A stretch of 64,000 nt of DNA from Ecdyonurus torrentis (Eukaryota; Arthropoda; Insecta; Ephemeroptera; Heptageniidae). The position numbers and the translations under genes are program-made. The notes beneath the pieces were generated by a model that did not search any database, was not told the DNA's origin, and saw only the letters and a list, made by a program, of their open reading frames with translations. The stretch lies in NCBI GenBank assembly GCA_949318235.1, contig OX439132.1, forward strand, positions 26,661,743-26,725,742. Reading direction: 5' to 3'. Shown piece by piece: positions 1 through 64,000 of the stretch (position 1 is the first letter of the stretch; each line of letters starts with the position of its first letter).

Positions 1-491
1 TAAAAATGCAAGATGTATTTTTTTTTCTTCTTCATCTTGTGATATTTTAAGCATTTTTATGAATATTTTGGAGTTTTGCTTAAAATTATGGAAATTATGT
101 TTAAATATTAATTCTTTACTCTACTGTTTTCTTTTTCTTAAGCTTAAAAACAAAAGTAGAAAAAATAAAATAGTAAATAAATAATTAATCCGTCGATAAA
201 GGTCAATAACAAAGCTCTAAAATGTTAAAGTATAAATCTAATATCCGGACAGTAAAAAGCAGATATAAAAAAAAAATATTGTAGAAAAAGAAAATATGTT
301 GCCAAAAAGTTTTGGTTGTATTAGCAGCATGAAAAATGATAGATTATGGGGAAAAAATAAACGAGAAACACGCAAGAATAAAAAAATGAAGTTAGACAAA
401 TAACAAGCCAAAAATTGATTTTCTTATTTACTTTTTTTGTTTGGGTCATTTTTATTTACTTTCAAATGTTGTTCTTAACTGAGTGCTTCAT

Positions 492-494
<3 letters not shown>
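1..494. other. AT-rich non-coding stretch
   Basis: I see no gene, repeat family or RNA here. It is AT-rich sequence with short A and T runs leading into the first CT tract. Confidence 0.6.

Positions 495-570
<76 letters not shown>
495..570. repeat. (CT)n microsatellite, 38 units
   Basis: Uninterrupted CT dinucleotide tract of 76 bp. Reading frames across it give Leu-Ser (plus) or Arg-Glu (minus) repeats and are not genes. Confidence 0.97.
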
Positions 571-577
<7 letters not shown>

Positions 578-1079
578 CTCTTTTAGATGATTGCCAAAAG
601 GTCGTAATTTTTTACGTTCAGATTTTTCTCTTTGTTTATATAAAGCAGCCTTTGTAATAAATTGTATTGCGTCTATTTGTATACATAAATTTGAAACACC
701 CAAGCTGTAAAGTAATTGTGGTTTTTACTTTTTTTTCCATTATATATGTTTCATGAAGTATAAATTTCATATAAATCTGATTCTAATGTCTTACCTATTA
801 CAAATATGTAAATAGATAAATCTACTTTTAACTTAAAAAGAAAATACATTTTTAGAAGTGCGAGCTTTAAACTATTCTTCTAAATTTAAATATTGACGTG
901 AAATTAAAAAAAATAAAAAAAAAAAATAATAATAAAAGTATTGGCTAAATTGATACGATACTAAACAACAGTTTGCAAAAAATTTGAAATAGTCAGTGCA
1001 CATATATATTATATATTTGGACACAAATAAATACCTAATGATTATACTAGACCATTTTCAGCAAAAGTATAGATTATTT
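571..1079. other. AT-rich non-coding stretch
   Basis: No supported gene or repeat, only AT-rich sequence with A runs around 900-930. Confidence 0.6.
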
Positions 1080-9890: not shown

Positions 9891-10189
9891 CTGCAACAAA
9901 ATACACTTAAAAAAAATAAATGTTTACTCTCAAAGCACAAAAGATTAGAGCCTATCTATATACGAAATGATTTAATTGTATGTCAGAGCACGTGTGTATT
10001 TTCACTAAATATTCAATATTTTTGAGGCTAGTGTCAATGCAAGTATGATGAATACAAAAGAAAAGTGGTTTCTCTGTAAACAATAGAGTATACTCTCTAT
10101 GCTCTCTACTTTACAAATTTTCATAGTACCCATGCACTTGCAGTGAGTAAACATTTAATATGCTTAATCTCTTGTTTGGAATTTTAAAA

Positions 10190-10445
10190 ATCGATGCTGT
10201 TGCGGCTAAAACACACTTCTACTTTTAGCGGTTTTCCTTACATTCACGCAACTACATTTATAGGGATACCCATAGAAACACACATTTACATTTATCGTGA
10301 CAACAGGTAAAAGAAGAAAAAAAACTTCTGCATAGGAACACAGGTGTAGGCGTGTTTTATACCTGTTGTCGCGATAAATGTAGATGCGTGAAAATAAGCA
10401 AACTCGCTAAAAGTAGAAGTGCGGTTTATCCGCAACAGCATCGAT
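10190..10445. mobile_element. Foldback MITE with long terminal inverted repeats
   Basis: The left end starts ATCGATGCTGTTGCGG and the right end is its reverse complement. The complementarity continues through CACTTCTACTTTTAGCG, TTCACGCA and CTACATTTAT, giving arms of roughly 75-80 bp (10190-10267 and 10372-10445). The left arm also holds a second ACATTTATCG–GACAACAGGTA block, suggesting a short internal duplication or insertion. There is no coding capacity, and I could not identify a target-site duplication. It is best read as a non-autonomous DNA transposon of unassigned superfamily. Confidence 0.75.
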
Positions 10446-10599
10446 AACTTTAGTTCCACTCTACGTATTAGAATTTAATCATGAATGTTTAGAGATAATA
10501 CACAAGATGTTTAGTATCAGTTTTAAACTACTATAGCCCCTACGATACTTTGTATTCTAACAGTGTTCAGAACAACAACTAATAATAATAACAATAATA

Positions 10600-15286: not shown

Positions 15287-15412
15287 TTAAAATATCATAT
15301 AGGATCCATATTATTACCGATGCAAAGAGCTATTTATTTTAAAAGTTTGTACTTTCAAACAAACGTTTTTATAAACTTAACTAATACATAATATTGAAAA
15401 TATGCTTATTAT
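15287..15412 (+). repeat. Duplicated segment, copy 1
   Basis: Matches 16885-16998: ATCATAT, then AGGATCCAT, ATTACCGATGCA, AGAGCTA, then CTAATACATA and TATTGAAAAT in the same order. The copies differ by several substitutions and small indels. Copy 1 ends at the left edge of a TTAA-flanked MITE, so the MITE may have landed in or beside it. Confidence 0.55.
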
Positions 15413-15739
15413 TTAAGCCATAGATCACATAAAACAACATGTGCTTTTTAATGAATAAACACAAAATGGGATCTTCAAAACGGATGACAATTTTTTCCAG
15501 CTACGAGAGAGCGTGAAAATACTGTAAAGTATGCAATTTCCGTGACTTTTAATGTTTCTGACGTTAGAAACATGCAAAAATTAGTGAAAAATGTTGTGCG
15601 GGTTGAATTAATTGAAATTTTCTGATCACTACTACGTAGCTATAGTTGGGTTTTGAGACAAACTAAAGTTATTAATGTAAGTCTCATCAAGTGTTTTGTG
15701 ATACAAATGCTTATATTTTCTTCTGGTCTATTCCTTTAA
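15413..15739 (+). mobile_element. TTAA-flanked MITE family, copy A
   Basis: Non-coding element of about 330 bp. The left end reads TTAAGCCATAGA and the right end GGTCTATTCCTTTAA. The family consensus starts TTAAAGCCATAGACCA and ends TGGTCTATTCCTTTAA, giving imperfect terminal inverted repeats of about 12 bp inside flanking TTAA. The TTAA flanks suggest mobilisation by a piggyBac-type transposase, which is an inference. Internal landmarks are GAGAGAGCGTGAAAATACTGTAAAGTATGCAAT-type sequence and a hairpin at 15552-15573 around TGACGTTA. Confidence 0.8.
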
Positions 15740-16884
15740 GGCTGAAAATAAGGTAATGCAAAGATTTGAAATAGGGTGTTTTTTTTTTTGTTTTTTTCTA
15801 AATACTGGATTACGGATTAAGATAAATTAATTACAAATATCCAATGAAAAAAAATGTGGAATCACGTGGCAAAATTTTGAATTAAGAATTTTAAAATAAA
15901 TTAAACCCTTAAGGCCCCACATTATTTGTTCCCCTACTTCTTTCTTGCTAATGGTCTCGGGTCCTGAGTTTTTTTTTGTGTTGAATAAACGAAGAATAAT
16001 TTTTAATAAATATAAATTCATTGAAATAAATTGAACGTTTCTTAATATACACAATACATAAATTTTATGTACAGATAAATTTTATTAACATACTTAAAAA
16101 ACATAATTACATTGTAGTAAATTTGTAGAATAAAATTTGAATAATAATGCTGTGTAAAATAATGAACAAAAAATAAACATACTTTGATGAACATGAAAAA
16201 CATAATCAACAAAAAGATAAACACATAAAAAAATTAGAATAACATTATTGTAAATTAATGAATTTTTATTGTTTTAATGAGAATAACATATTATAATGAA
16301 TTTAAACAAGAATTTAGAGGTGAAATATGTTGATAATATTCGTGGTATAAAACATAATTTAATTTATATTCACATAATATACTGATATTAATATTCAATT
16401 GTATAACTAAATGAAGGGTATAGATAATATAGAATTTAATATCTTTATAACAAAATATTATTATAAATGGATTTTACATGGTTAAATTGTCAAATTATAA
16501 AATATATACATTGATATTTTATTATAGATTTGATATAATTTGTTGTTTAATTAGTTATTTTCTAAATTAGAAGTTATAGCAATATGTCATAAGTACAGTA
16601 TAATATTCTCAAATTATTATAATGCATTGTAAATAAATATTATATTCATGACAAATTTACTTTCGTGTGTAATATTTTAATTTCCTTTATTGTACTTCAA
16701 AGTTAAATGGTTTATTTGGATCTTTTGATTGTTGCAGTTAACAAAGTTACAGTGATCAACATATTCTTGTCAAATAATATAATTAACTTGCATTACTTAA
16801 GATTAAGTTTCAAATATACTGTTGATTTATAGTAAATATTTTAAACATATATGTTTTTCCGTTATTAATATCTTTAATATTCTG
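15740..16884. other. AT-rich non-coding stretch
   Basis: No gene. The minus frames at 15827-16054 and 16042-16224 show no domain. Confidence 0.6.
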
Positions 16885-17633: not shown

Positions 17634-17835
17634 ATTACGTCCCTGTCACTGATGTTCCGGAGGTAAAAATAATACCAGTTTAAATTCACTTAAAACTTAA
17701 AACAATTTAAACCCGGAAATATGTGCTTTTATATCAACATAAAAAATTGGTAATAAAATATTTCAAAAGATCACTCTCTAACTTGTTTTAGCTTAGATTT
17801 TAAATACCATAAAAATACATCGTAAAAGTACTTAT

Positions 17836-18178
17836 TTAAAGGAATAGACCAGAGAAAAACATAAGCATTTATATCACAAAACACTTGATGAGATTTACAT
17901 AAATAACATTAGTTTATCTCAAAACCCAACAGTAGCCCTGTAGCAGTGATCTGCAGAAAATTCGATTTATGCAACCCGCACAACATTTTCATACTAATTT
18001 TTCATAAACATGAATTTTCACGCAAATTGCATACTTAACAGTACTTTCACGCTCTCTCGTGGGGCTTCATTAAAATTCTGGTAAAAATTGTCATCAGTTT
18101 TGAAGATCCCATTTCATGTTTATTCATTAAAAAGCACATGTTGTTTTATGTAGTCTATATGGCTTTAATACTAATACT
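17836..18178 (-). mobile_element. TTAA-flanked MITE family, copy B
   Basis: Inverted full-length copy of the family seen at 15413. It starts TTAAAGGAATAGACC and ends GGCTTTAA on the plus strand. The internal hairpin is mostly gone: only CATAAACATG remains at 18003-18012 where other copies have a 24-bp palindrome. Confidence 0.8.
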
Positions 18179-20759: not shown

Positions 20760-22224
20760 ACAACTAACTAGTACAATAAAAAGTTGTTAGTTTTGTTTTA
20801 CAATAACCTCATAGTGAAGTCTGATTTAACGAACGGAAATGTTAATATGTATTTAGAAGTTTAAAAAAAAAAAAAAAGAAAAACAGTTAAAAAAGAAGTC
20901 AAAATTTCGTTTCAAAAGTTTGAATTCTAAATGGTTCTTGATCTTACATTTTTATAGTTACATAATTAATATTAAAGTTATTACAAATTTTTTATACTAT
21001 AATTTCTCTTTCTTTTGCAATATACTGATTCAAAAAATCAAACTTAAAAAAAAAAAAATCTGACTGGCATTGTATTGGCACTAATTAGTTTTTTGGATTT
21101 GTTGAATAAATTTTGTATGATCAGATATCCAATATGCATTTTTTTCCCTTTGTTCTTTCCTTCCTTTCAAATATATGTAGCAGTAGTTAAATTTAAAAGA
21201 AACAACATTTACAAAATGCATTATGTGTACGTACACTATGTGTATATAAAAAAATCCAATTGAATAGATTAAAAGCTTTCCAATATATAAAAAGTTATTT
21301 CGTTCTATATGATAAACAATATTGAAATGTATAACAATCTCCATGGTAACAAGAAGAGAAGTAATTAGCAAGTTACATGTTGCATACATGTATGAAATTG
21401 CTATAATGTAGAGAGAGATGAATAATATAGCTTATATATAGCTCTCTCAACCTAACTCATGTTATGATAGGAGAAACATTAGTAAGCCTTATTACAAGAG
21501 AAGTGGATGAAAATGATTCTTGTGATTACATGCATGTTACATCAATTATTATTCCTACCATTATTTTTATTATTAAAATAGAACTATAAAATACGGATAT
21601 ACTAAAAACTTCGATTAAAAAAAAAAAAAAAGTACAGTACAGTACATTAAAGTAAAACAAAGGGGGTACTTTTGTCTATGGGTATTATGGGTATTAAAAA
21701 GTCTTTATTTCGTATCTGTTGAATATTTTTACTATTCTTATGACTGATTGTGAGTTATATTTGCACTGCGTAATAAATATAATCAAATGGAAATTCAATA
21801 CTATTCAATATTTATACTACAGTATAGTGCTATAAATTTCATAACATACGATATTAATACGGACTTAAATATGGTATATTTTCATATTTTAATAAGTATA
21901 GTCATAATATATAAGTATAGCCAATAAAAGATCCAAAAATGTTTTTTTTTAATTTTAAAAAAGTTTCTAATTTACTAGTTTCTAATTTTCTTGGCACTAA
22001 AATTTAAAATTTCACATTTAGACGTTATCTTATAAATAGAATAACTTCATTATTTGGCCGTGTTTGCATGTGTAATAACTAACATTTTAAGTAACATTTC
22101 ATTGTTATGTTAATTTTATATTTCGCGACCGTTCAGTTTGTGAGATAGAAGTCGGTCACCTACTTACTACTTTCAGTATTATTATATCATTCAAATATGG
22201 TTTAAAGTTTGTAAGCTATATATC
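20759..22224. other. AT-rich non-coding stretch
   Basis: No gene. The minus frame at 21081-21389 (102 codons, Ile/Tyr/Asn-rich) has no recognisable domain and looks like chance. Confidence 0.6.
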
Positions 22225-22578
22225 TTAAAGAAATAGACTAGAAGAAAACATAAGCATTCATATCACAAAACACTTAATGGGACTTACATAAATAACTTTA
22301 GTTTGTCTCAAAACCCAACTGTAGCTCCGTAGCAGTGATCAGAAAATTTTGATTTATGCAACTCGCACAACATTCTTCATTCTTTACTAATTTTTGCATG
22401 TTTCTGACGTCGGAAACATGAATATGAATAGTCACACAAATTGCATACTTTATAGTATTTTCACGCTCTCTCGTGGGGCTACATTAACATTCCGGTAAAA
22501 ATTATCATCAGTTTTGAAGATCCCAATTCATGTTTATTCATTCTAGCACATGTTGTTTTATGTGGTCTATGGCTTTAA
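22225..22578 (-). mobile_element. TTAA-flanked MITE family, copy C
   Basis: Inverted copy with both ends: TTAAAGAAATAGACTAG on the left and GGTCTATGGCTTTAA on the right. The internal palindrome at 22397-22420 is intact except for TGACGTCG in its centre. Confidence 0.85.
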
Positions 22579-36291: not shown

Positions 36292-36640
36292 TTAAAGCCA
36301 TAGACCAAATAAAACAACATGTGCTTTTTAATGAATAAACACAAAAAGGGATCTTCAAAACTGATGACAATTTTTACCAGAATGTTAATTGTTAATTTAG
36401 CCCCTTGAGAGAGCATGAAAAAACTGTAAAGTATGCAATTTGCGTGAAAATTCATGTTTATGACGTCAGAAACATGCCAAAAGTAGTAAGGAAATGTTGT
36501 TCGGGTTGCATAAATCGAATTTTCTGATCACTGCTACGGAGCTACTGTTGGGTTTTGAGACAAACTAATGGTATTTATGTAAATCCCATAAGTGTTTTGT
36601 GATATAAATGCTTACGTTTTTCTCTGGTCTATTCCTTTAA
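36292..36640 (+). mobile_element. TTAA-flanked MITE family, copy D
   Basis: Full-length copy with both ends matching the family consensus: TTAAAGCCATAGACCA at the start and TCTGGTCTATTCCTTTAA at the end. The internal palindrome at 36453-36476 keeps an intact TGACGTCA centre with one arm mismatch. This is the best reference copy in the window. Confidence 0.87.
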
Positions 36641-37308: not shown

Positions 37309-37718
37309 GAAGTTTAGTTACTAAGTTCCCTATAGTAGAATATGATTATATTTCAAATTTTATTTTAAAAGTTGATATGTAAGCATTTTTTAGTCATATA
37401 CTTCACAAGAAAGAGACGTTTAAAAAAAAGATTATAAAAGTTACTATCTCTGTAAGAAGAAAACAAAAAGATTTTAAAAACCATTTATAATTTTTGTGTG
37501 TAAAACTCCTTGTCTTTGGAGAATTAGGAAGTGCGTAAAATGGAATCATATATCAGCGTGATTTAGTCGGCAATGTAATTCTTTTTGAACACTGACTTGA
37601 ACGGATTTCATTATAAATTAATGTTTCTGTACAATTTTCTCGTGCGTAATAATCAAGTGAGCTCAACAAAGAAAATTAATCGTTATTTTTTTTTTAAGTT
37701 TTTTTTCCTTATATATTA
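36641..37718. other. AT-rich non-coding stretch
   Basis: No gene. A T run at about 37278-37302. Confidence 0.6.
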
Positions 37719-37744
37719 CAGTCAACCGGGGTGAAATTGAACGC
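37719..37744 (+). repeat. Left terminal inverted repeat of the pogo-type element
   Basis: Starts CAGTCAACCGGGG and ends GAAATTGAACGC. It is identical to the reverse complement of 40414-40439. TA precedes it at 37717-37718. Confidence 0.95.
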
Positions 37745-37896
37745 TTTTGGTAACATATTATAACATATCTCAGCCAATAAATTTTTTTCAGCAAAACAAA
37801 AAATAATGGTGGTGTAACTTACTTAGTACTAGCTAAATCAAGTCCAATATTTAAATTTTCATTTCACACCACAGAGAAAAAAAATCAAAATAGGTG

Positions 37897-37935
37897 TGTT
37901 CAATTTCACCCCGGCAACGGGGTGAAATTGAACGC
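37897..37935. repeat. Subterminal inverted pair of the terminal motif
   Basis: Two further copies of the CGGGGTGAAATTGAACGC motif, facing each other: minus orientation at 37897-37914 (TGTTCAATTTCACCCCGG) and plus at 37918-37935, three bases apart. They are probable transposase-binding sites by analogy with other pogo elements. Confidence 0.85.
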
Positions 37936-38211
37936 TTTGTGAAATACTTACATTCTTGGTGTTTCATGCTTGGCAGTTCTCTAGAAACATTGTATATTCA
38001 AAAATAAAGTGAATTTTAGTTAAAAATAAGTAAAAATAATAGATTTATAATAGAAATAGTAAATTTTATTACAAATTGTGTTGATATTAACAGTAGTATG
38101 ATAATTAATATAGATATTTACATAAAATTTAAAATCAAACCTACTATAACAATATACTATGACATCTTACAATTAAATTGCAAACACAAAATATAAATTT
38201 AAAACTAAAAA

Positions 38212-38934
38212 GAAAGATAGAATGCTACTACGTAGACTTCTCGGACATCAACAGGTTGACTGAACTGGTAGGTAAAACGGCTTCCAGCTACTACGAGAAT
38301 AGGATTTGGTAGCACTGCAACAATATCATTGTGACCAATAACAGAAATACCAGTTTATGGACAAAGATGAAAACGTTGAAAAAGAATATAATTAGTGCAT
38401 TCAAAGCTACAGGCATCATCGCCCTCAATTTGAGTGCTAAGCTGAAGAGACTGCCAGGCCATGAGGACCCTGAGAAAGTACAAAGTGAAGCCTGCAAGGA
38501 GCTGGTGGTGAACTTCTACAAACAACAGCACTTCACAGACAAGCCAGTGACTGAGAGGAGGCACAGGACTAGATTGAATGTAGTACCTGGCAAGAGAGTA
38601 GCTGCTACCCAAGACTCAGAGAGTGAGAGTAATGCTAGCCATTCTGACATTGACTCGGACAGCAGCTCTGCATCTGAGGAAGATGGTGATGAGGAGGAAG
38701 AGGAACTGAGCCATGTTGAGTCATCTCAATCTTATACCTGCCAATAGCTATCTCTTTGTTGAGTTTCAGGGAGGCAGTCGTAGACAAATTGTATGGTATC
38801 GTTACGTCTGTGTTGTAGAGAGAGTTGCTGCTGAAGGGCTGCAGGTTATGGGATTCAGATCTCTTCACTCTAGCAAGACTGTATTTGAGCCAAAAGAAAC
38901 TGAAATTGGTCACAACAACAATATCAACAATATC
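38212..38934 (+). pseudogene. Pogo-type transposase C-terminal fragment, left palindrome arm
   Basis: The arm is 38212-38880 and the spacer continues the frame. From a GTG at 38331, 138 codons run to TAG at 38745. Upstream, the same frame is open back past 38232 but is cut by TAG at 38310. Early in the fragment KKNIISAFKATGI matches the motif that closes the DDE domain in pogo/jerky-type transposases, usually followed by PLNP. Here the next residues are IALN, an unusual change. Then come KRLPGHEDPEK, a basic stretch and a Ser/Asp/Glu-rich tract (about residues 96-129). The conserved tail continues in the +1 frame (38713 onward: ANSYLFVEFQGG, YRYVCVVERVAAEGLQVMGF, then VFEPKETEIG inside the spacer), so a frameshift separates the two parts. 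There is no catalytic core. Confidence 0.8.
38881..38934 (+). other. Palindrome spacer (loop)
   Basis: 54 bp of unique sequence between the two arms. On the plus strand it extends the left arm's tail frame with VFEPKETEIG, then becomes a CAA/TAT-rich repeat. On the minus strand it gives nothing transposase-like. This asymmetry shows which way the original tail ran into the loop. Confidence 0.75.
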
Positions 38935-39713
38935 AGTCTTGCTAGAGTGAAGAGATCTGAATCCCATAACCTGCAGCCCTTCAGCAGCAACTCTCTCTAC
39001 AACACAGACGTAACGATACCATACAATTTGTCTACAACTGCCTCCCTGAAACTCAACAAAGAGATAGCTATTGGCAGGTATAAGATTGAGATGACTCAAC
39101 ATGGCTCAGTTCCTCTTCCTCCTCATCACCATCTTCCTCAGATGCAGAGCTGCTGTCCGAGTCAATGTCAGAATGGCTAGCATTACTCTCACTCTCTGAG
39201 TCTTGGGTAGCAGCTACTCTCTTGCCAGGTACTACATTCAATCTAGTCCTGTGCCTCCTCTCAGTCACTGGCTTGTCTGTGAAGTGCTGTTGCTTGTAGA
39301 AGTTCACCACCAGCTCCTTGCAGGCTTCACTTTGTACTTTCTCAGGGTCCTCATGGCCTGGCAGTCTCTTCAGCTTAGCACTCAAATTGAGGGGGACGAT
39401 GCCTGTAGCTTTGAATGCACTAATTATATTCTTTTTCACCGTTTTCATCTTTGTCCATAAACTGATATTTCTGTTATTGGTCACAATGATATTGTTGCAG
39501 TGCTACCAAATCCTATTCTCGTACAAGCTGGAAGCCGTTTTACCTACCAATTCAGTTGATGTCTGAGAAGTCAAGAAGCATTCTATCTTTCCAGCTGCTC
39601 TTCTAAGAGAAATATGTCCCTTTTTAACATTTTCTTTGGTTTGCTCAAGAGTCTCAGGTTTTTAGTTCTTGTAGCTTCAAGTGCCAGTAGGACTGGGTGT
39701 ATGTTCGTGGCAT
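38935..39713 (-). pseudogene. Pogo-type transposase pseudogene: N-terminus fused to C-terminus, right arm
   Basis: On the minus strand a splice-acceptor-like TTTTATTTCAG ends at 39730 and the start codon lies at 39713-39711, opening MPRTYTQSYW, typical of pogo-type proteins. The frame stops after 20 codons. The HTH reads on in another frame (39658-39592: ETLEQTKENVKKGHISLRRA then AGK), matching the psq helix-turn-helix. At about 39591 it jumps to the C-terminal segment: GTG at 39484, KKNIISAFKATGIVPLN, then the acidic tract and a TAG at 39068-39070. The GIVPLN here is closer to the family form than the left arm. The core between the HTH and the C-terminus, normally several hundred residues with the DDE triad, is absent. 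At least two frameshifts and one large deletion make it non-functional. Confidence 0.8.
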
Positions 39714-40044
39714 TTTGTCCAACACAAAACTGAAATAAAACAACACATCATTAAAATTTAATGTCACATGTTTTTAAAGCACTAACTTATTGATATACAG
39801 TTGTTCTTACAGGATCTTGAAATAAAAATTAAGAAAAAAAAAAGCTCTTATCTATTGTGATATGAATGACTTAAATTTTGGGCATATGTACTCAAAATTA
39901 GTCACTATACTGCATGAAATAAAACAGAAGTAAAAAAAGTTCTAATTATTGCACCATGGTTCTCATTTGTAGTTTTTTTCATTTACTTAGTATTTCAAAG
40001 AAGGTTTTGCTCTTATGCCAAAAATTAAAATTCAATCAGCGGGT

Positions 40045-40061
40045 GTTCAATTTCACCCCGG
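40045..40061 (-). repeat. Subterminal copy of the pogo terminal motif
   Basis: GTTCAATTTCACCCCGG, the same motif as in the terminal repeats, 17 bp. Confidence 0.85.
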
Positions 40062-40394
40062 AGGAACTTTGTGCTAATAAAATCACAACTGATCATGCAA
40101 TCAATGCAATTTTTGGTACAGGTGTTCACAAGGGTATTTGTGGCAAGTTAATAATAGGTAGGATGTTCAAATTTATTTTATTTACCTTGTAGAGTCCTTG
40201 TTTGTGGAGCTTCATTTTTCTTTCGTTTTCTTCATGTTCAACAAATAATTTTTTTACCCCAAAAAGATGGTATGTTTCCCACCAAAAGTAACAAAAACTG
40301 AAAACATAACTCCTCATCCATCTATTCAGTAAAAAAAATAGATCAAAAAGTGCACCAGTTTTTTAAAAACGTTATTTTAGTAAAATTTGGCCAA

Positions 40395-40439
40395 GCGTTC
40401 AATTTCACCCCGGGCGTTCAATTTCACCCCGGTTGACTG
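40395..40439 (-). repeat. Right terminal inverted repeat with tandem motif
   Basis: Two head-to-tail copies of GCGTTCAATTTCACCCCGG (40395-40413 and 40414-40432), the outer one being part of the 26-bp terminal repeat (40414-40439). TA follows at 40440-40441. Confidence 0.93.
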
Positions 40440-40889
40440 TATATAAATTAAATATTTTATTACTTTTCAATTTCTACATTTTTTGTCTTATATAGCGTAT
40501 GTAATTTATTTATATTTCTCCCACATACAAAGACCAATAATACCATGTAACATTTTTACTATAGTTATTGATATAGTTATAGGTATTAGCTTTAAGTGCT
40601 TCTATTTGTTATCCTTGAAAAATATCGTAAATTCACATTTTATTTAGAGAACTTTAGTATATAATTATGCAGATTCATTTACGATGAAAGTTATTGTAGA
40701 ATTATAAGGATCAACAACCAATTTACTTAAAGTAGTTTTTATTACAGCTGGTGCTAATATAGTGACTTTAATTGGTTAGATTACGAGCAAAATACTATAG
40801 TACTATAGTTATAATGATAGATATGATATTTTTGTCGATTGGCCAAAAATTTTTTTTTAATAAATAATAATAATAAAAAAAAAAAAAGC
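40440..40889. other. AT-rich non-coding stretch
   Basis: No gene between the pogo-type element and the next MITE. Confidence 0.6.
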
Positions 40890-41219
40890 TTAAAGCCATA
40901 GACCACGTAAAACAACATGTGCTTTTTAATGAACGAACACGAAATGGGATCTTCAAAACTGATGATGATGACAATTTTTACCAGAAATGTAGCCCCACGA
41001 GAGAGCGTGAAAATACTGTAAAATATGCAATTTATGTAACTATTCATGTTTCGGACGTCAGAAACATGCAAGAATTAGTAAAAAATGTTGTGTGGGTTGC
41101 ATAAATCGAAATTTTCTGATCACTGCTACGGGGTTTTGAGACAAACTAAAGTTATTTATGTAAGTCCCATCAAGTGTTTTGTGATATAAATGCTTATTTT
41201 TTCTGGTCTATTCCTTTAC
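40890..41219 (+). mobile_element. TTAA-flanked MITE family, copy E
   Basis: Starts TTAAAGCCATAGACCA and ends TCTGGTCTATTCCTTTA, where the last TTAA has become TTAC. The palindrome at 41044-41067 is intact apart from one base pair (GGACGTCA). A short deletion removes part of the block after GATCACTGCTACGG. Confidence 0.85.
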
Positions 41220-53136: not shown

Positions 53137-54593
53137 AGAGAATAGGATTGTGTAATTAAGCAAATGGTTCGGTTGAGAGAGAAAATGGTTAACATTAAAT
53201 CACGTTTAGAGTATAATATAGTACGTATACGTATAACTATATATATATATAGAAAATAAATCCTATACTTAATTATATTGAACTTGTAACTAAAGAGTGT
53301 AATCGTGCATGTAGTTAAATGTTTTTGGAACACATTTTTAATGCTTAAAAAAAAATGAAATGAAATGAAATGGTTGAATAAAATTATGTTCATGATATAA
53401 AATAGTATATTTGTAAGTAAAATAATTGCAATGTCAATGATTTATTCATGAATTTTAGAATGAAAAATTGCATTGAAAATCAATTGCTAACTTTTTTTAT
53501 TGAAATCCAGCGTGTGCAGTACAAAAAAAAATGTAGATAAGGAAATTAAAAAAAATCTTGAAAATTCATCATAAAAATAAGTTTCTTTTTAGCTTTATAT
53601 CAAATTGAACATAAAAATATATTTACTTTTTATATGATTCATACAAAATCAATTACTTAATTAATTAATAGTAAGTCAGAAAATTAAAAAATATAATAAT
53701 TTAGAGTTACAAGTAAATATTATATAATTAAGCAGTAAAAAAAAAGTGACTTACTAATTAATTACTTATAATAATAAGAAAAAAAATATACTATGTTATA
53801 TTATATAATGAAAAAGTTATAAAATTAATTAAATTAATATTAATGCAAATCAAATTAAAAACTTATTAATTAGAAAATAATGAAGTAGCTACATTTTCTA
53901 TTGTTTTGTTAGTTTTAACAAGTCAAGTGACGCAAAGAGACAAATGGGTTTTGTTTCAAACTTTGTGAATAAAAGTAAGGGACAAAAAACTTTTCTAAAA
54001 ACAACTTTTCTAACTGTTTTTTTTTTTTTCTTTTTGTCACCAAAAGATAATAAAAGAAAGAAGTAAGAAAAAAAATCAGGACCACCTGTGTTAAAAGTAA
54101 AATTAAAATAACATTTTATATCAACTTTATTTTGTGAATTACAAAAAAAAAAAGGTGAAATATATTTTTAAACTTTTTTTGTAAGTATACTTATACACCA
54201 AAAATGAAGACGTAATATTAAAATATAATTTTATTATAAAATATTATTCAATATTTTAAAGTTGAGTTTTATTTGAATCAATGAGTCCAAATTACCCCCC
54301 AAAAAAATATGAAAAAATGAAACTAATAAGGGTATATCATTATTATTATTATTATGATATATTGAATTATATTTATGTATGATTTAAGTTCCATTAATGC
54401 TTTATATTATATAAGAGTTGTAGTTAGGTGGTTTGTATCTCTGAAATTCAAAGGTTGATCCCTTCTATCTGTATGTCATTTAATTTTCATTGGCATTCAA
54501 AATTAAGCTGACAATTTCATTTATAAAAAATTAAGTAAAAAAAAATAATAATAATAAAAAAAAAAGATTACTCTAGATGCAGAACAATATTAC
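53132..54593. other. AT-rich non-coding stretch
   Basis: No gene. An A/ATA-rich run at 54534-54566 sits just before the SINE-like repeat. Confidence 0.6.
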
Positions 54594-54990
54594 GCTGGTA
54601 TGGCTGAGTAATGAAGGAAGCTGACTTGTTACTCGGTGCTCCTTACTGGGCGCAGGTTCAAGCCACTGTTGCGGGTGAATACATAAAGTGTGAAAGAATA
54701 AACACAACACGTTGTTTGACACGCATTTCATGACGACGCACAGCATTCGGAAGGTATATTATGATTTATGAGATTGCACCAATCCACCTGTCTCGACGTT
54801 TCCACGGTGTCTCTAGGCTGCCATTGCAAATGCCGGACTATGTATAAGGCCGTGGCTGACTCGTGTGTATGTTTTTCATTGAAGCTGTTGACTTCTATCT
54901 TGACAGGACTGTGGAGAAGGTGTGTAAAACGATAAAACAATATCGGGTGAGGGGGATACTCTGTGCACAATCGTAAACTCATAAGTGTAT
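54594..54990 (+). repeat. tRNA-derived SINE-like repeat
   Basis: The head resembles a class II (Ser/Leu-type) tRNA. GCTGGTA is followed by an A-box region TGGCTGAGTAATGAAGG (54601-54617), then GACTTGTTACTC, a stretch like a long variable arm, and GCGCAGGTTCAAGCC with B box GGTTCAAGCC at 54655-54664. The T and acceptor stems do not pair well, so it is not a working tRNA. A GC-richer body of about 300 bp follows (ACACGTTG, CACCTGTCTCGACG, GGCCGTGGCTGACTC). No other copy is in the window, so the 3' boundary is approximate. A 97-codon minus frame across it is not a gene. Confidence 0.55.
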
Positions 54991-55667
54991 TAATCTTGAT
55001 CTTGGAATTACAATATTTCAATATTTAGAATCTTGTATATTAAAAAATAATGAACCTATAATGTTGAGTTCATACACTTAATTTAGTTTCTTAAATTACA
55101 TTTAAGTTAATATAGCTTATAAGTGTAGTGCTACGTGCTACGTAACAATATACCTAAGGCGTAACTTTACAATAAATGTAGGCAATTATATATCAACAAA
55201 GCCAGTATAATTACATAGGTAACATAAGTAACCAAATTATAACTTTGATAAATACATTTTAGTTATAACTTAAAATAAAGGTCAAACGTAATTTTCACAG
55301 TATTCATAGTTCTTGCTACATTATACTTTCAGGAAGAAAACAAAACAAAAACTTAATTGACTGTATTTACAGTTTCATTGCATAATTATAGAATTCATCA
55401 ATTAAATAAATGAATAAAATATACATTTACTCCATTTCCAGAAGTTTGTATACCTTTTGTGTTCTCTAAATAAAAACCATTTATAATTATTATTTATAAA
55501 CTTTTTAGTGCTAGTTTTATTGAAACTAAAGTCACATATTCATTTAAAAAACAATGTATTTTACATAACATAACAATACAACAAAAGTAAATGTCAAAAC
55601 TATTACACTTTTGTGTTATGCCTCGGTATATATTTAATTTTAATCACAAAGAACGTAAAAGTTTATT

Positions 55668-55712
<45 letters not shown>

Positions 55713-56343
55713 TTCTTTTACAAGAAAATGTAAATATCTAACAAGGGGTAAAAAGAGAGAGAGAGAGAAAAAAATGTGTCACCATAGCCGTGTGGTAAGC
55801 AAGGTAAAATTTACACCTTTTTATGTACTGTTGTGACCCTCTAAATTATTTTAATTACTTTAGTAAAATAAAAAAGAGAGAAATATGTGATAATGTTAAA
55901 GTGTGTTTTGCATACTGTAGGCTAGTTTGTATATTAAACTTAATAATATATTATAGTATGAGGTTGGTATTTTAAAATAAAAAGGAAATGAAAATAAAGT
56001 TGATATAATTTAGTTGTTGTTATTGTGGTTATGTACACACTAATTTTAGATAAGATTTTTTGTGTGTGTGTGTGCGTTTGGTATAATTATTTTTAATTTA
56101 AATTGTAACATTTTTATTTTAAAGTACCTTTTTGTATGTTTACTGGATGAATGTTGAAGCTATGTGTAATAATAGTAAGGAAAATATTATATGGTGTGAT
56201 TACTTTTAATTTGTAAAACTATACATTTTAATGATAAGAATCGTATTTATGAAGGTTTCAAGATAAGCAATTAAAAAAAAATGAAAAAGTTCTGGTGTAA
56301 TCTATCAGAATTTCATACCTTTCGTTCATAAATTACGTAAAAG
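54991..56343. other. AT-rich non-coding stretch
   Basis: No gene. A TA tract at 55674-55709 and a short GA tract near 55754-55768. Confidence 0.6.
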
Positions 56344-56653
56344 TATTGACTATTAGAAAACATAAGCATTTATATCACAAAACACTTGATGAGAATGGGA
56401 CTTTACATAAATAACTTTAGTTTGTCTCAAAATTGCAATCAGTGATCAGAAAATTACGACTTATGCAACCCGCACAACATTTTATACTAATTTTGCCGGT
56501 TTCTGACGTTAGAAACCGGAATTGTCACTTAAATAGTATGCTTTATAGTATTTTTACGCTCTCTTGTGGAGCCATATTTACATTCTGATAAAATTTGTCA
56601 ACAGTTTTAAAAATCCCATTTTGTGTTTAATCATTAATCATTAAAAAGCACAT
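56344..56653 (-). mobile_element. TTAA-flanked MITE family, copy F (degraded)
   Basis: Inverted copy that keeps the interior (AAACATAAGCATTTATATCACA, CACTTGATGAG, GTTTGTCTCAAAA, CGCACAACATT, ACGCTCTCTTGTGG, AAAAAGCACAT) but has lost both recognisable ends. The internal hairpin at 56496-56519 has CCGG…CCGG where the other copies have CATG…CATG. Confidence 0.8.
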
Positions 56654-63609: not shown

Positions 63610-63726
63610 TTAATACAATAATTTTTAATTGGATTATGAAAGAAATTAATATGTTCCAGTTTTAGGTAATCTTACTGATGTGTCTGTTATGGTGTGTTTA
63701 CATGGTGTAATATATTTAAAATCTAT

Positions 63727-63912
63727 GCTTACCCGTCGAAGTGAACGTACTACACTTTACAAATTTTGTGAAAAATGAACGATCTACACTTTACAAATTC
63801 CAATAAGTTCCCCCATTTAGTTTTCATGTTAAAACGCGTAGAAGCGCCAAACGTTGATCGTTCATTTTGAGTGAAATTTGTAAAGTGTAGTGCATTCACT
63901 TTGACGGGTAAA
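63727..63912. mobile_element. Foldback MITE with arms of about 57 bp
   Basis: The left arm (63727-63784) starts GCTTACCCGTCGAAGTGAA, continues CTACACTTTACAAATTT and ends AAAATGAACGATC. The right arm (63856-63912) is its reverse complement with about ten mismatches. The loop starts with a second partial copy of TACACTTTACAAATT. There is no coding capacity and no clear target duplication. Confidence 0.75.
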
Positions 63913-63921
63913 CATCAAAAT

Positions 63922-64000
63922 GTGTAATAAATTTTATTGCATGCAATCTCTATTTAAAACCATTTCAAAGTTTCGTGTATTTAAGTTTATTGCATATTGC
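63922..64000 (+). repeat. Possible dispersed repeat, copy 2 (cut by window end)
   Basis: Shares AAATTTTATTG, ATGCAATCTC and TTAAAA with 4664-4740. It also ends in TTTATTGCATATTGC, a related motif. It runs off the window and its limits are unknown. Confidence 0.35.

What the first reader, a model, noticed from the sequence alone, without database searches (positions are those of the whole stretch)
37719..40439. A pogo-type transposon turned into a long natural hairpin
Seen: perfect 26-bp terminal repeats with TA flanks enclose a palindrome of the transposase 3' half, with arms of about 660 bp and a 54-bp loop. In the inner 550 bp I counted about six differences between the arms, so they are roughly 99% identical. 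Known: inverted duplications of DNA transposons can produce hairpin RNA that silences the family; the maize Mu killer derivative of MuDR is the classic case. Inference: this locus could be a trans-acting silencer of its pogo family.
Basis: partly seen in the sequence, partly recalled or inferred. Interest (0 to 1): 0.75.

Follow-up and report, generated by a model that had tools for sequence, protein, structure and literature searches.

The report
Mobile pogo element carrying long hairpin
A jumping-gene derivative whose middle was rebuilt as a 660-base mirror-image repeat is not a lone wreck but has spread to several places in its genome; it would give a long double-stranded RNA matching its own family if transcribed, which is untested.

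Summary
In detail: 37719-40439 has 26/26-bp TIRs with TA flanks around a palindrome (arms 670/658 nt, loop 52 nt). Relatives place it in the pogo superfamily.

Both native ends are kept, the catalytic domain is absent, and each arm is a mosaic: residues ~564-600 are inverted relative to ~378-564. The loop holds the trace of a fold-back template switch.

The host genome search, finally answered, changed the reading. The same palindrome, with the same junctions, lies at other sites with unrelated flanks: five complete copies including this one, plus broken ones. Divergence as low as 0.44% between complete copies means recent movement. In two lineages the inner arms resemble each other more than any other copy, a sign of arm-to-arm gene conversion.

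So this is a transposing, non-autonomous hairpin element. Silencing remains untested; no catalytic-domain copy of this family was seen among the candidates scored, which speaks against a present target.

The parts
37717..37718 (.). TA target dinucleotide, left
37719..37744 (-). 26-bp TIR at the 3' end of the element
   Evidence: 193 forward and 195 reverse matches to the TIR at up to 2 mismatches in the genome, control 0 and 0
37726..37933 (.). three copies of the 17-bp end motif: 37726-37742 (+), 37898-37914 (-), 37917-37933 (+, 1 mismatch); binding-site role inferred
   Evidence: 6 matches in the window, all inside the element; shuffles mean 0.03
37745..38211 (-). native 3' terminal region
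   Evidence: first 220 nt of the element align to the 3' side of same-genome relatives L155-L159, L161-L163
38212..38881 (.). left arm: residues ~564-600 on minus (38348-38238), then residues ~387-564 on plus (38385 on, running into the loop to 38907)
38882..38933 (+). loop: continues the plus-strand frame, then ATTGGTCACAA (38905-38915) and CAACAATATCA (38916-38926), abutting native 11-mers in opposite orientation; a 9-nt repeat unit in it is absent from two other copies (C12, C26c)
38934..39591 (.). right arm: residues ~554-384 on minus (38938-39439), residues ~563-593 on plus (39464-39556)
39592..39713 (-). degenerate N-terminal remnant, residues ~1-40, stops and frame break
   Evidence: tblastn E 0.025 here and 0.004-0.022 in other copies; no Pfam hit
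39714..40413 (-). native 5' terminal region with end motifs 40045-40061 and 40397-40413 (-)
   Evidence: last 394 nt of the element align to the 5' side of relatives L155-L163
40414..40439 (-). 26-bp TIR at the 5' end; motif 40416-40432 (-)
40440..40441 (.). TA target dinucleotide, right

Best explanation
A non-autonomous pogo-superfamily element with a hairpin interior. SHOWN: anatomy, several copies with the same junctions at unrelated sites, recent divergence. INFERRED for its birth: once, during repair of a break in a parent element, synthesis inward from the 3' end ran through residues 601 to ~563, switched strand to residue ~378, ran to ~565, folded back and copied its own new strand, and was joined to the N-terminal stub. 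INFERRED for its life: the kept ends let transposase supplied in trans move it as a unit; gene conversion between the arms, at least in the window's lineage and in the C21 lineage, from time to time makes the inner duplex near perfect again. If transcribed, from the native 5' side or from outside, its RNA would fold into a ~660-bp duplex that Dicer could cut. I put a single fold-back origin at about 0.85, movement by transposition at about 0.95, some siRNA production in some tissue at about 0.4, and a real effect on a family member at about 0.12.
For: Copies: 20 arm matches (lower bound by the tool's note). Fetched: complete copies C26a, C26b, C20 and C21 besides the window; C21 has a ~0.4-kb insertion near its 3' tip, and TA stands on both sides in 4 of these 5 (C20's left tip is altered). 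Two copies in a C8 cluster keep both arms but are damaged; C12 runs into an N run; C26c has lost one arm. Junctions shared, loop identical in the five complete copies. Flanks of 2 kb (8 copies): 9 matches of 50 bp or more, 6 of them the dispersed ~350-bp repeat, none marking a duplicated site. Divergence: WIN-C12 3/1718, C26a-C26b 12/2720, these two to C20 0.7-0.9%, others 2.7-4.5%. Normal order: 6 of 6 relatives matching both segments, P0001 included, and 9 of 9 same-genome relatives L155-L163. Ends: element 1-220 and 2328-2721 match the 3' and 5' sides of those relatives. Conversion: in the inner segment WIN arms pair (support 0.991) and C21 arms pair (0.997), the outer segment groups by side (0.968); WIN has 3 substitutions and 5 gap columns, C21 6 substitutions, private to one copy and shared by both arms, while side-fixed substitutions are 0 inner and 3 outer. 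Fold.
Against: No transposase source seen: of 79 places listed for P0001 none covers residues 160-353 except a 619-aa frame at 31% identity (C1:504594), another family (73 of 224 candidates scored). None of 16 other TIR-bearing loci fetched holds transposase sequence at E <= 0.01. A search aimed at the catalytic domain did not complete. In C26a, C26b and C20 the arms differ by 2.2-3.0% and group by side, so conversion is not general. The two ends, motifs masked, show an AT-rich alignment above 200 simple shuffles (31 against a maximum of 24). The N-terminal stub is a weak match. No RNA data; the promoter scan is bacterial; AATAAA at 40182 and 40177 on the coding strand, no more than chance, could cut transcripts short.
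Confidence: 0.8

Rival explanations
1. A working trans-acting silencer: the hairpin RNA is diced (or seeds piRNAs) and represses family members. Not exclusive with the best explanation.
For: Long duplex kept in five complete copies; in the window copy 466 of 650 left-arm 21-mers have a perfect partner; hairpin lies between native 5' and 3' ends; precedents Mu killer and D. simulans hp-ODox2 with BS2/Jockey arms (PMC10317233 passages).
Against: No RNA data; no target with a catalytic domain seen; same-genome relatives match the arm segments at only about 61-65% in DNA.
Confidence: 0.12
2. Arm likeness is kept by selection for pairing, not by gene conversion alone.
For: Arms of WIN and C21 nearly identical.
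Against: Shared changes include a stop in both C21 arms and the frame change in both WIN arms, as conversion gives; arms of three young copies differ by 2-3%.
Confidence: 0.04
3. A one-off defective copy, merely duplicated with its surroundings.
For: The C8 cluster has several copies close together.
Against: Unrelated flanks and TA at the other sites.
Confidence: 0.03
4. Tail-to-tail or nested insertion of two elements.
For: Opposite orientation of the two C-terminal copies.
Against: All six motif matches lie towards the outer ends, none at an arm border; both arms share the mosaic junction.
Confidence: 0.02
5. Assembly or read artefact.
For: No reads available.
Against: Arms differ in 24 columns; the same palindrome with the same loop at several sites.
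Confidence: 0.02

Closest known systems
Mu killer (maize MuDR derivative)
   Same: Inverted duplication of transposase sequence between transposon ends; RNA could fold back.
   Different: Two copies of one end (TIRA), arms colinear with mudrA, ~1.3 kb, one locus between two maize genes (PMC3440606 passages). Here the ends differ, arms are C-terminal and mosaic, and copies have spread. Muk silences genetically; the paper ties this to short antisense transcripts and leaves the hairpin as possible.
Drosophila hpRNA loci, e.g. D. simulans hp-ODox2
   Same: Inverted repeat with TE-derived arms.
   Different: hp-ODox2 is transcribed and gives Dcr-2-dependent small RNAs (PMC10317233 passages); here no RNA data, and the hairpin is itself inside a DNA transposon.
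Foldback / Galileo-type elements
   Same: Mobile DNA elements with long inverted repeats.
   Different: There the long repeats are the ends (recalled; Galileo seen only in a listing, PMC2775673); here the palindrome is internal and the TIR is 26 bp.
pogo superfamily, DD35D groups
   Same: TA target, TIR, DDE_1 relative with HTH.
   Different: P0001 has HTH_psq with DD35D; passages of PMC7386202 give HTH_psq for Fot/Fot-like and DD35D for Passer and Fot/Fot-like, so the family is unsettled.

Membership tests
pogo superfamily derivative | TA target and TIRs | tested here: met
pogo superfamily derivative | transposase homologous to DDE_1 proteins with DDxD triad | tested here: met
   P0001 E 5.5e-44, DDE_1 E 9.8e-22, D177/D297/D333; the element itself lacks the domain
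pogo superfamily derivative | N-terminal HTH | tested here: inconclusive
   weak remnant, no Pfam hit
pogo superfamily derivative | placement in a named pogo family by tree | not tested
   no typed reference set
non-autonomous mobile element | several copies at unrelated sites with intact ends | tested here: met
Mu killer-like locus | inverted transposase duplication between ends | tested here: met
Mu killer-like locus | both ends from the same element end | tested here: not met
   (ends match opposite sides of relatives)
Mu killer-like locus | heritable silencing of the family | not testable with these tools
   needs genetics or RNA data
hpRNA locus | long hairpin | tested here: met
hpRNA locus | transcript and Dicer-dependent siRNAs | not testable with these tools
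   no RNA data
hpRNA locus | matching target in the genome | tested here: inconclusive
   none with a catalytic domain of this family listed (not all candidates scored); the aimed search did not complete
Foldback/Galileo type | long inverted repeats form the element's ends | tested here: not met
   palindrome internal, TIR 26 bp

The most novel reading that the evidence does not exclude
A self-limiting mobile RNAi trigger: a pogo element that spreads by family transposase while carrying, inside the family's own transcription unit, a ~660-bp hairpin of that transposase, with arm-to-arm gene conversion restoring the duplex; it may have helped to silence its family to the point where no catalytic copy was seen in this assembly.
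Probability: 0.1. Interest if true: 0.88.

Novelty: new variant of a known kind. Interest (0 to 1): 0.55.

Why it matters
The hairpin derivative of a transposon that I could compare with, Mu killer, is a single locus. Here the hairpin itself is mobile and multi-copy, with arms that evolve in concert in some copies, so the idea that a transposon family can breed its own RNAi trigger becomes testable by mapping small RNAs to a handful of defined loci. Even if silent, it is a readable case of fold-back repair captured and multiplied by transposition.

Tried and rejected
Flanking direct repeats as LTRs: they are two of six copies of a dispersed repeat.

Led nowhere: Pfam on fragments; 144-aa protein search (0 of 42); PDB sequences (one hit at E 0.26); viral contigs (0); an 18-mer in genome contigs (118 stretches up to its limit, the 80 listed bacterial by title, taken as unrelated, not examined); Rfam and tRNA (0); ORF scan for host genes. 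Literature (listings only): no title describing a pogo or mobile hairpin transposon among those listed (20 of 550; 20 of 36; 1 of 1; 2 of 2; 6 of 6; 7 of 7); the end motif is in 0 papers. The C26c rows (7.5-11%) were dropped because that copy lacks an arm and is misaligned. The segment test (7/127 against 5/531, Fisher p 0.0029, split chosen after seeing the data) is superseded (realigned: 6/126).

Odds changed from the returned draft because: mobility up from 0.1, one-off repair down, silencing slightly down because no target was seen, the novel case up from 0.05.

Full report
Observation. 37717-37744 and 40414-40441 are 100% complementary: a 26-bp TIR plus TA on each side of 2,721 bp. Inside lies a palindrome, arms 38212-38881 and 38934-39591, loop 52 nt, with 24 of 670 columns different, 12 of them substitutions. 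The inner 991 nt folds at -984.6 kcal/mol against -314.6 +/- 8.9 for 20 shuffles.

What it is. A padded query scored over its C-terminal part found one protein at E <= 0.1 among 468 candidates: P0001, Ephemera danica, 601 aa, 51% identity, 91% coverage as listed, E 5.5e-44. It has DDE_1 and HTH_psq and a DD35D triad. P0001 gave 303 proteins at E <= 1e-20 among 7,996 scored, 120 listed; 98 of those 120 match the window at E <= 0.01, none outside the element. The element is a pogo-superfamily derivative; its family within pogo was not placed by a tree.

Anatomy. Along the plus strand: residues 600-564 (minus), 387-564 (plus, in two frames), 554-384 (minus, in two frames), 563-593 (plus), and weakly 40-10 (minus, E 0.025). 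Residues 41-383 have no meaningful match in the window. The last ~37 residues are flipped within each arm: 6 of 6 relatives matching both segments, P0001 included, and 9 of 9 same-genome relatives L155-L163 have the normal order. The first 220 and last 394 nt of the element match the 3' and 5' sides of eight of those relatives at about 69%, and less completely of L160, so both native ends are kept. A direct test of the two ends against each other, motifs masked, gave a score of 31 against at most 24 in 200 simple shuffles in inverted orientation, an AT-rich, gappy alignment; I do not read it as the same end twice, given.

The loop continues the plus-strand frame and then holds ATTGGTCACAA and CAACAATATCA. 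In the native gene the first is directly followed by the reverse complement of the second: a turn-around of synthesis.

The genome. After 12 unanswered tries the host genome (503 Mb, 117 contigs, unnamed) was searched with the arm: 20 matches, a lower bound. Fetched loci show the same 2.7-kb element complete at C26:26.0 Mb, C26:59.4 Mb, C20:12.57 Mb and C21:21.5 Mb besides the window. C21 has a ~0.4-kb insertion near its 3' tip, and the left tip of C20 is altered. Broken versions lie at C8:34.73-34.75 Mb (two with both arms, two single-arm pieces), C12:7.99 Mb (beside an N run) and C26:31.07 Mb (one arm lost). Junctions are shared, and the loop is identical in the five complete copies; C12 and C26c lack a 9-nt repeat unit in the loop and C8b differs there. 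TA stands on both sides in 4 of the 5 complete copies. Flanks are unrelated apart from dispersed repeats and short matches. Divergence: 3/1718 between the window and the readable part of C12, 12/2720 between C26a and C26b, 0.7-0.9% from these to C20, 2.7-4.5% otherwise. So the rearrangement happened once and the product moved, some of it recently.

The arms. In the inner segment the two arms of the window copy group together (support 0.991), as do those of C21 (0.997), while C26a, C26b and C20 group by side; in the outer segment the arms group by side (0.968). Private changes shared by both arms: 3 substitutions and 5 gap columns in WIN, 6 substitutions in C21. Within-copy inner divergence runs from 1/538 (C21) and 5/531 (WIN) to 16/532 (C26a). 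This is what occasional arm-to-arm gene conversion of the inner ~530 bp would leave.

Family and target. The TIR occurs 193 times forward and 195 reverse at up to 2 mismatches, control 0 and 0. Of 16 other TIR-bearing loci fetched, 0 hold transposase sequence at E <= 0.01; many are MITE-like, sharing the first ~220 nt. P0001 gave 79 places (73 of 224 candidates scored), among them 32 with the N-terminal ~100 residues of a related element; in the eight such loci fetched the catalytic domain has no match. Residues 160-353 are matched only by a 619-aa frame at 31% identity. No same-family transposase source was seen, which weakens a present silencing role and leaves the mover unknown; the aimed search did not complete.

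Comparison. Mu killer has the same idea but two TIRA ends, colinear arms and one locus, and the paper ties silencing to short antisense transcripts (PMC3440606 passages). hp-ODox2 shows TE-armed hairpins feeding siRNAs in a fly (PMC10317233 passages). Aedes is reported to use siRNAs on TEs only as an auxiliary, with long hairpins possibly overlooked (PMC12076837 passages), and mollusks to show no evidence of a dedicated endo-siRNA pathway (PMC12479628 passages); so much depends on the host, which I could not name.

Verdict. Real, mobile, multi-copy; origin readable; silencing open.

Noticed in passing
15410-15740 (+), 17832-18168 (-), 22220-22578 (-), 36292-36640 (+), 40890-41218 (+), 56333-56637 (-): Six copies of a dispersed ~350-bp repeat, 67-86% alike in pairs, with imperfect inverted ends and TTAA beside some copies (my reading): MITE-like. 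Also found in flanks of other hairpin copies.
   Followed up: partly
own genome, e.g. L155-L159, L161-L163: 32 listed places with P0001 residues ~1-101; in the eight loci fetched these are followed by C-terminal residues ~372-592 but no match to the catalytic domain: another amplified, domain-deleted pogo element of ~3 kb with ends ~69% like the hairpin element's.
   Followed up: partly
own genome, L165-L180: 388 copies of the TIR at up to 2 mismatches in the genome; of the 16 loci fetched, those with two TIRs are mostly MITE-like elements of 1.4-2.9 kb without transposase sequence.
   Followed up: partly
L164 (C1:503000-507500): A 619-aa open frame at about 30% identity to P0001 over residues 10-406: a different, apparently intact pogo-like gene or transposase.
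   Followed up: no
L128, L129 (C8:34.73-34.75 Mb): A cluster of hairpin copies in which two are single-arm pieces ending at the palindrome centre, as centre breakage would leave.
   Followed up: partly
10177-10458 and 63709-63933: Two imperfect palindromes (about 68% self-match), MITE-like; 10177-10458 has matching ends ATCGATGCTGTTGCGG / CCGCAACAGCATCGAT.
   Followed up: no
54576-55024: A 0.42-0.46 GC island with open frames up to 98 aa in a gene-poor window; could hold an exon.
   Followed up: no
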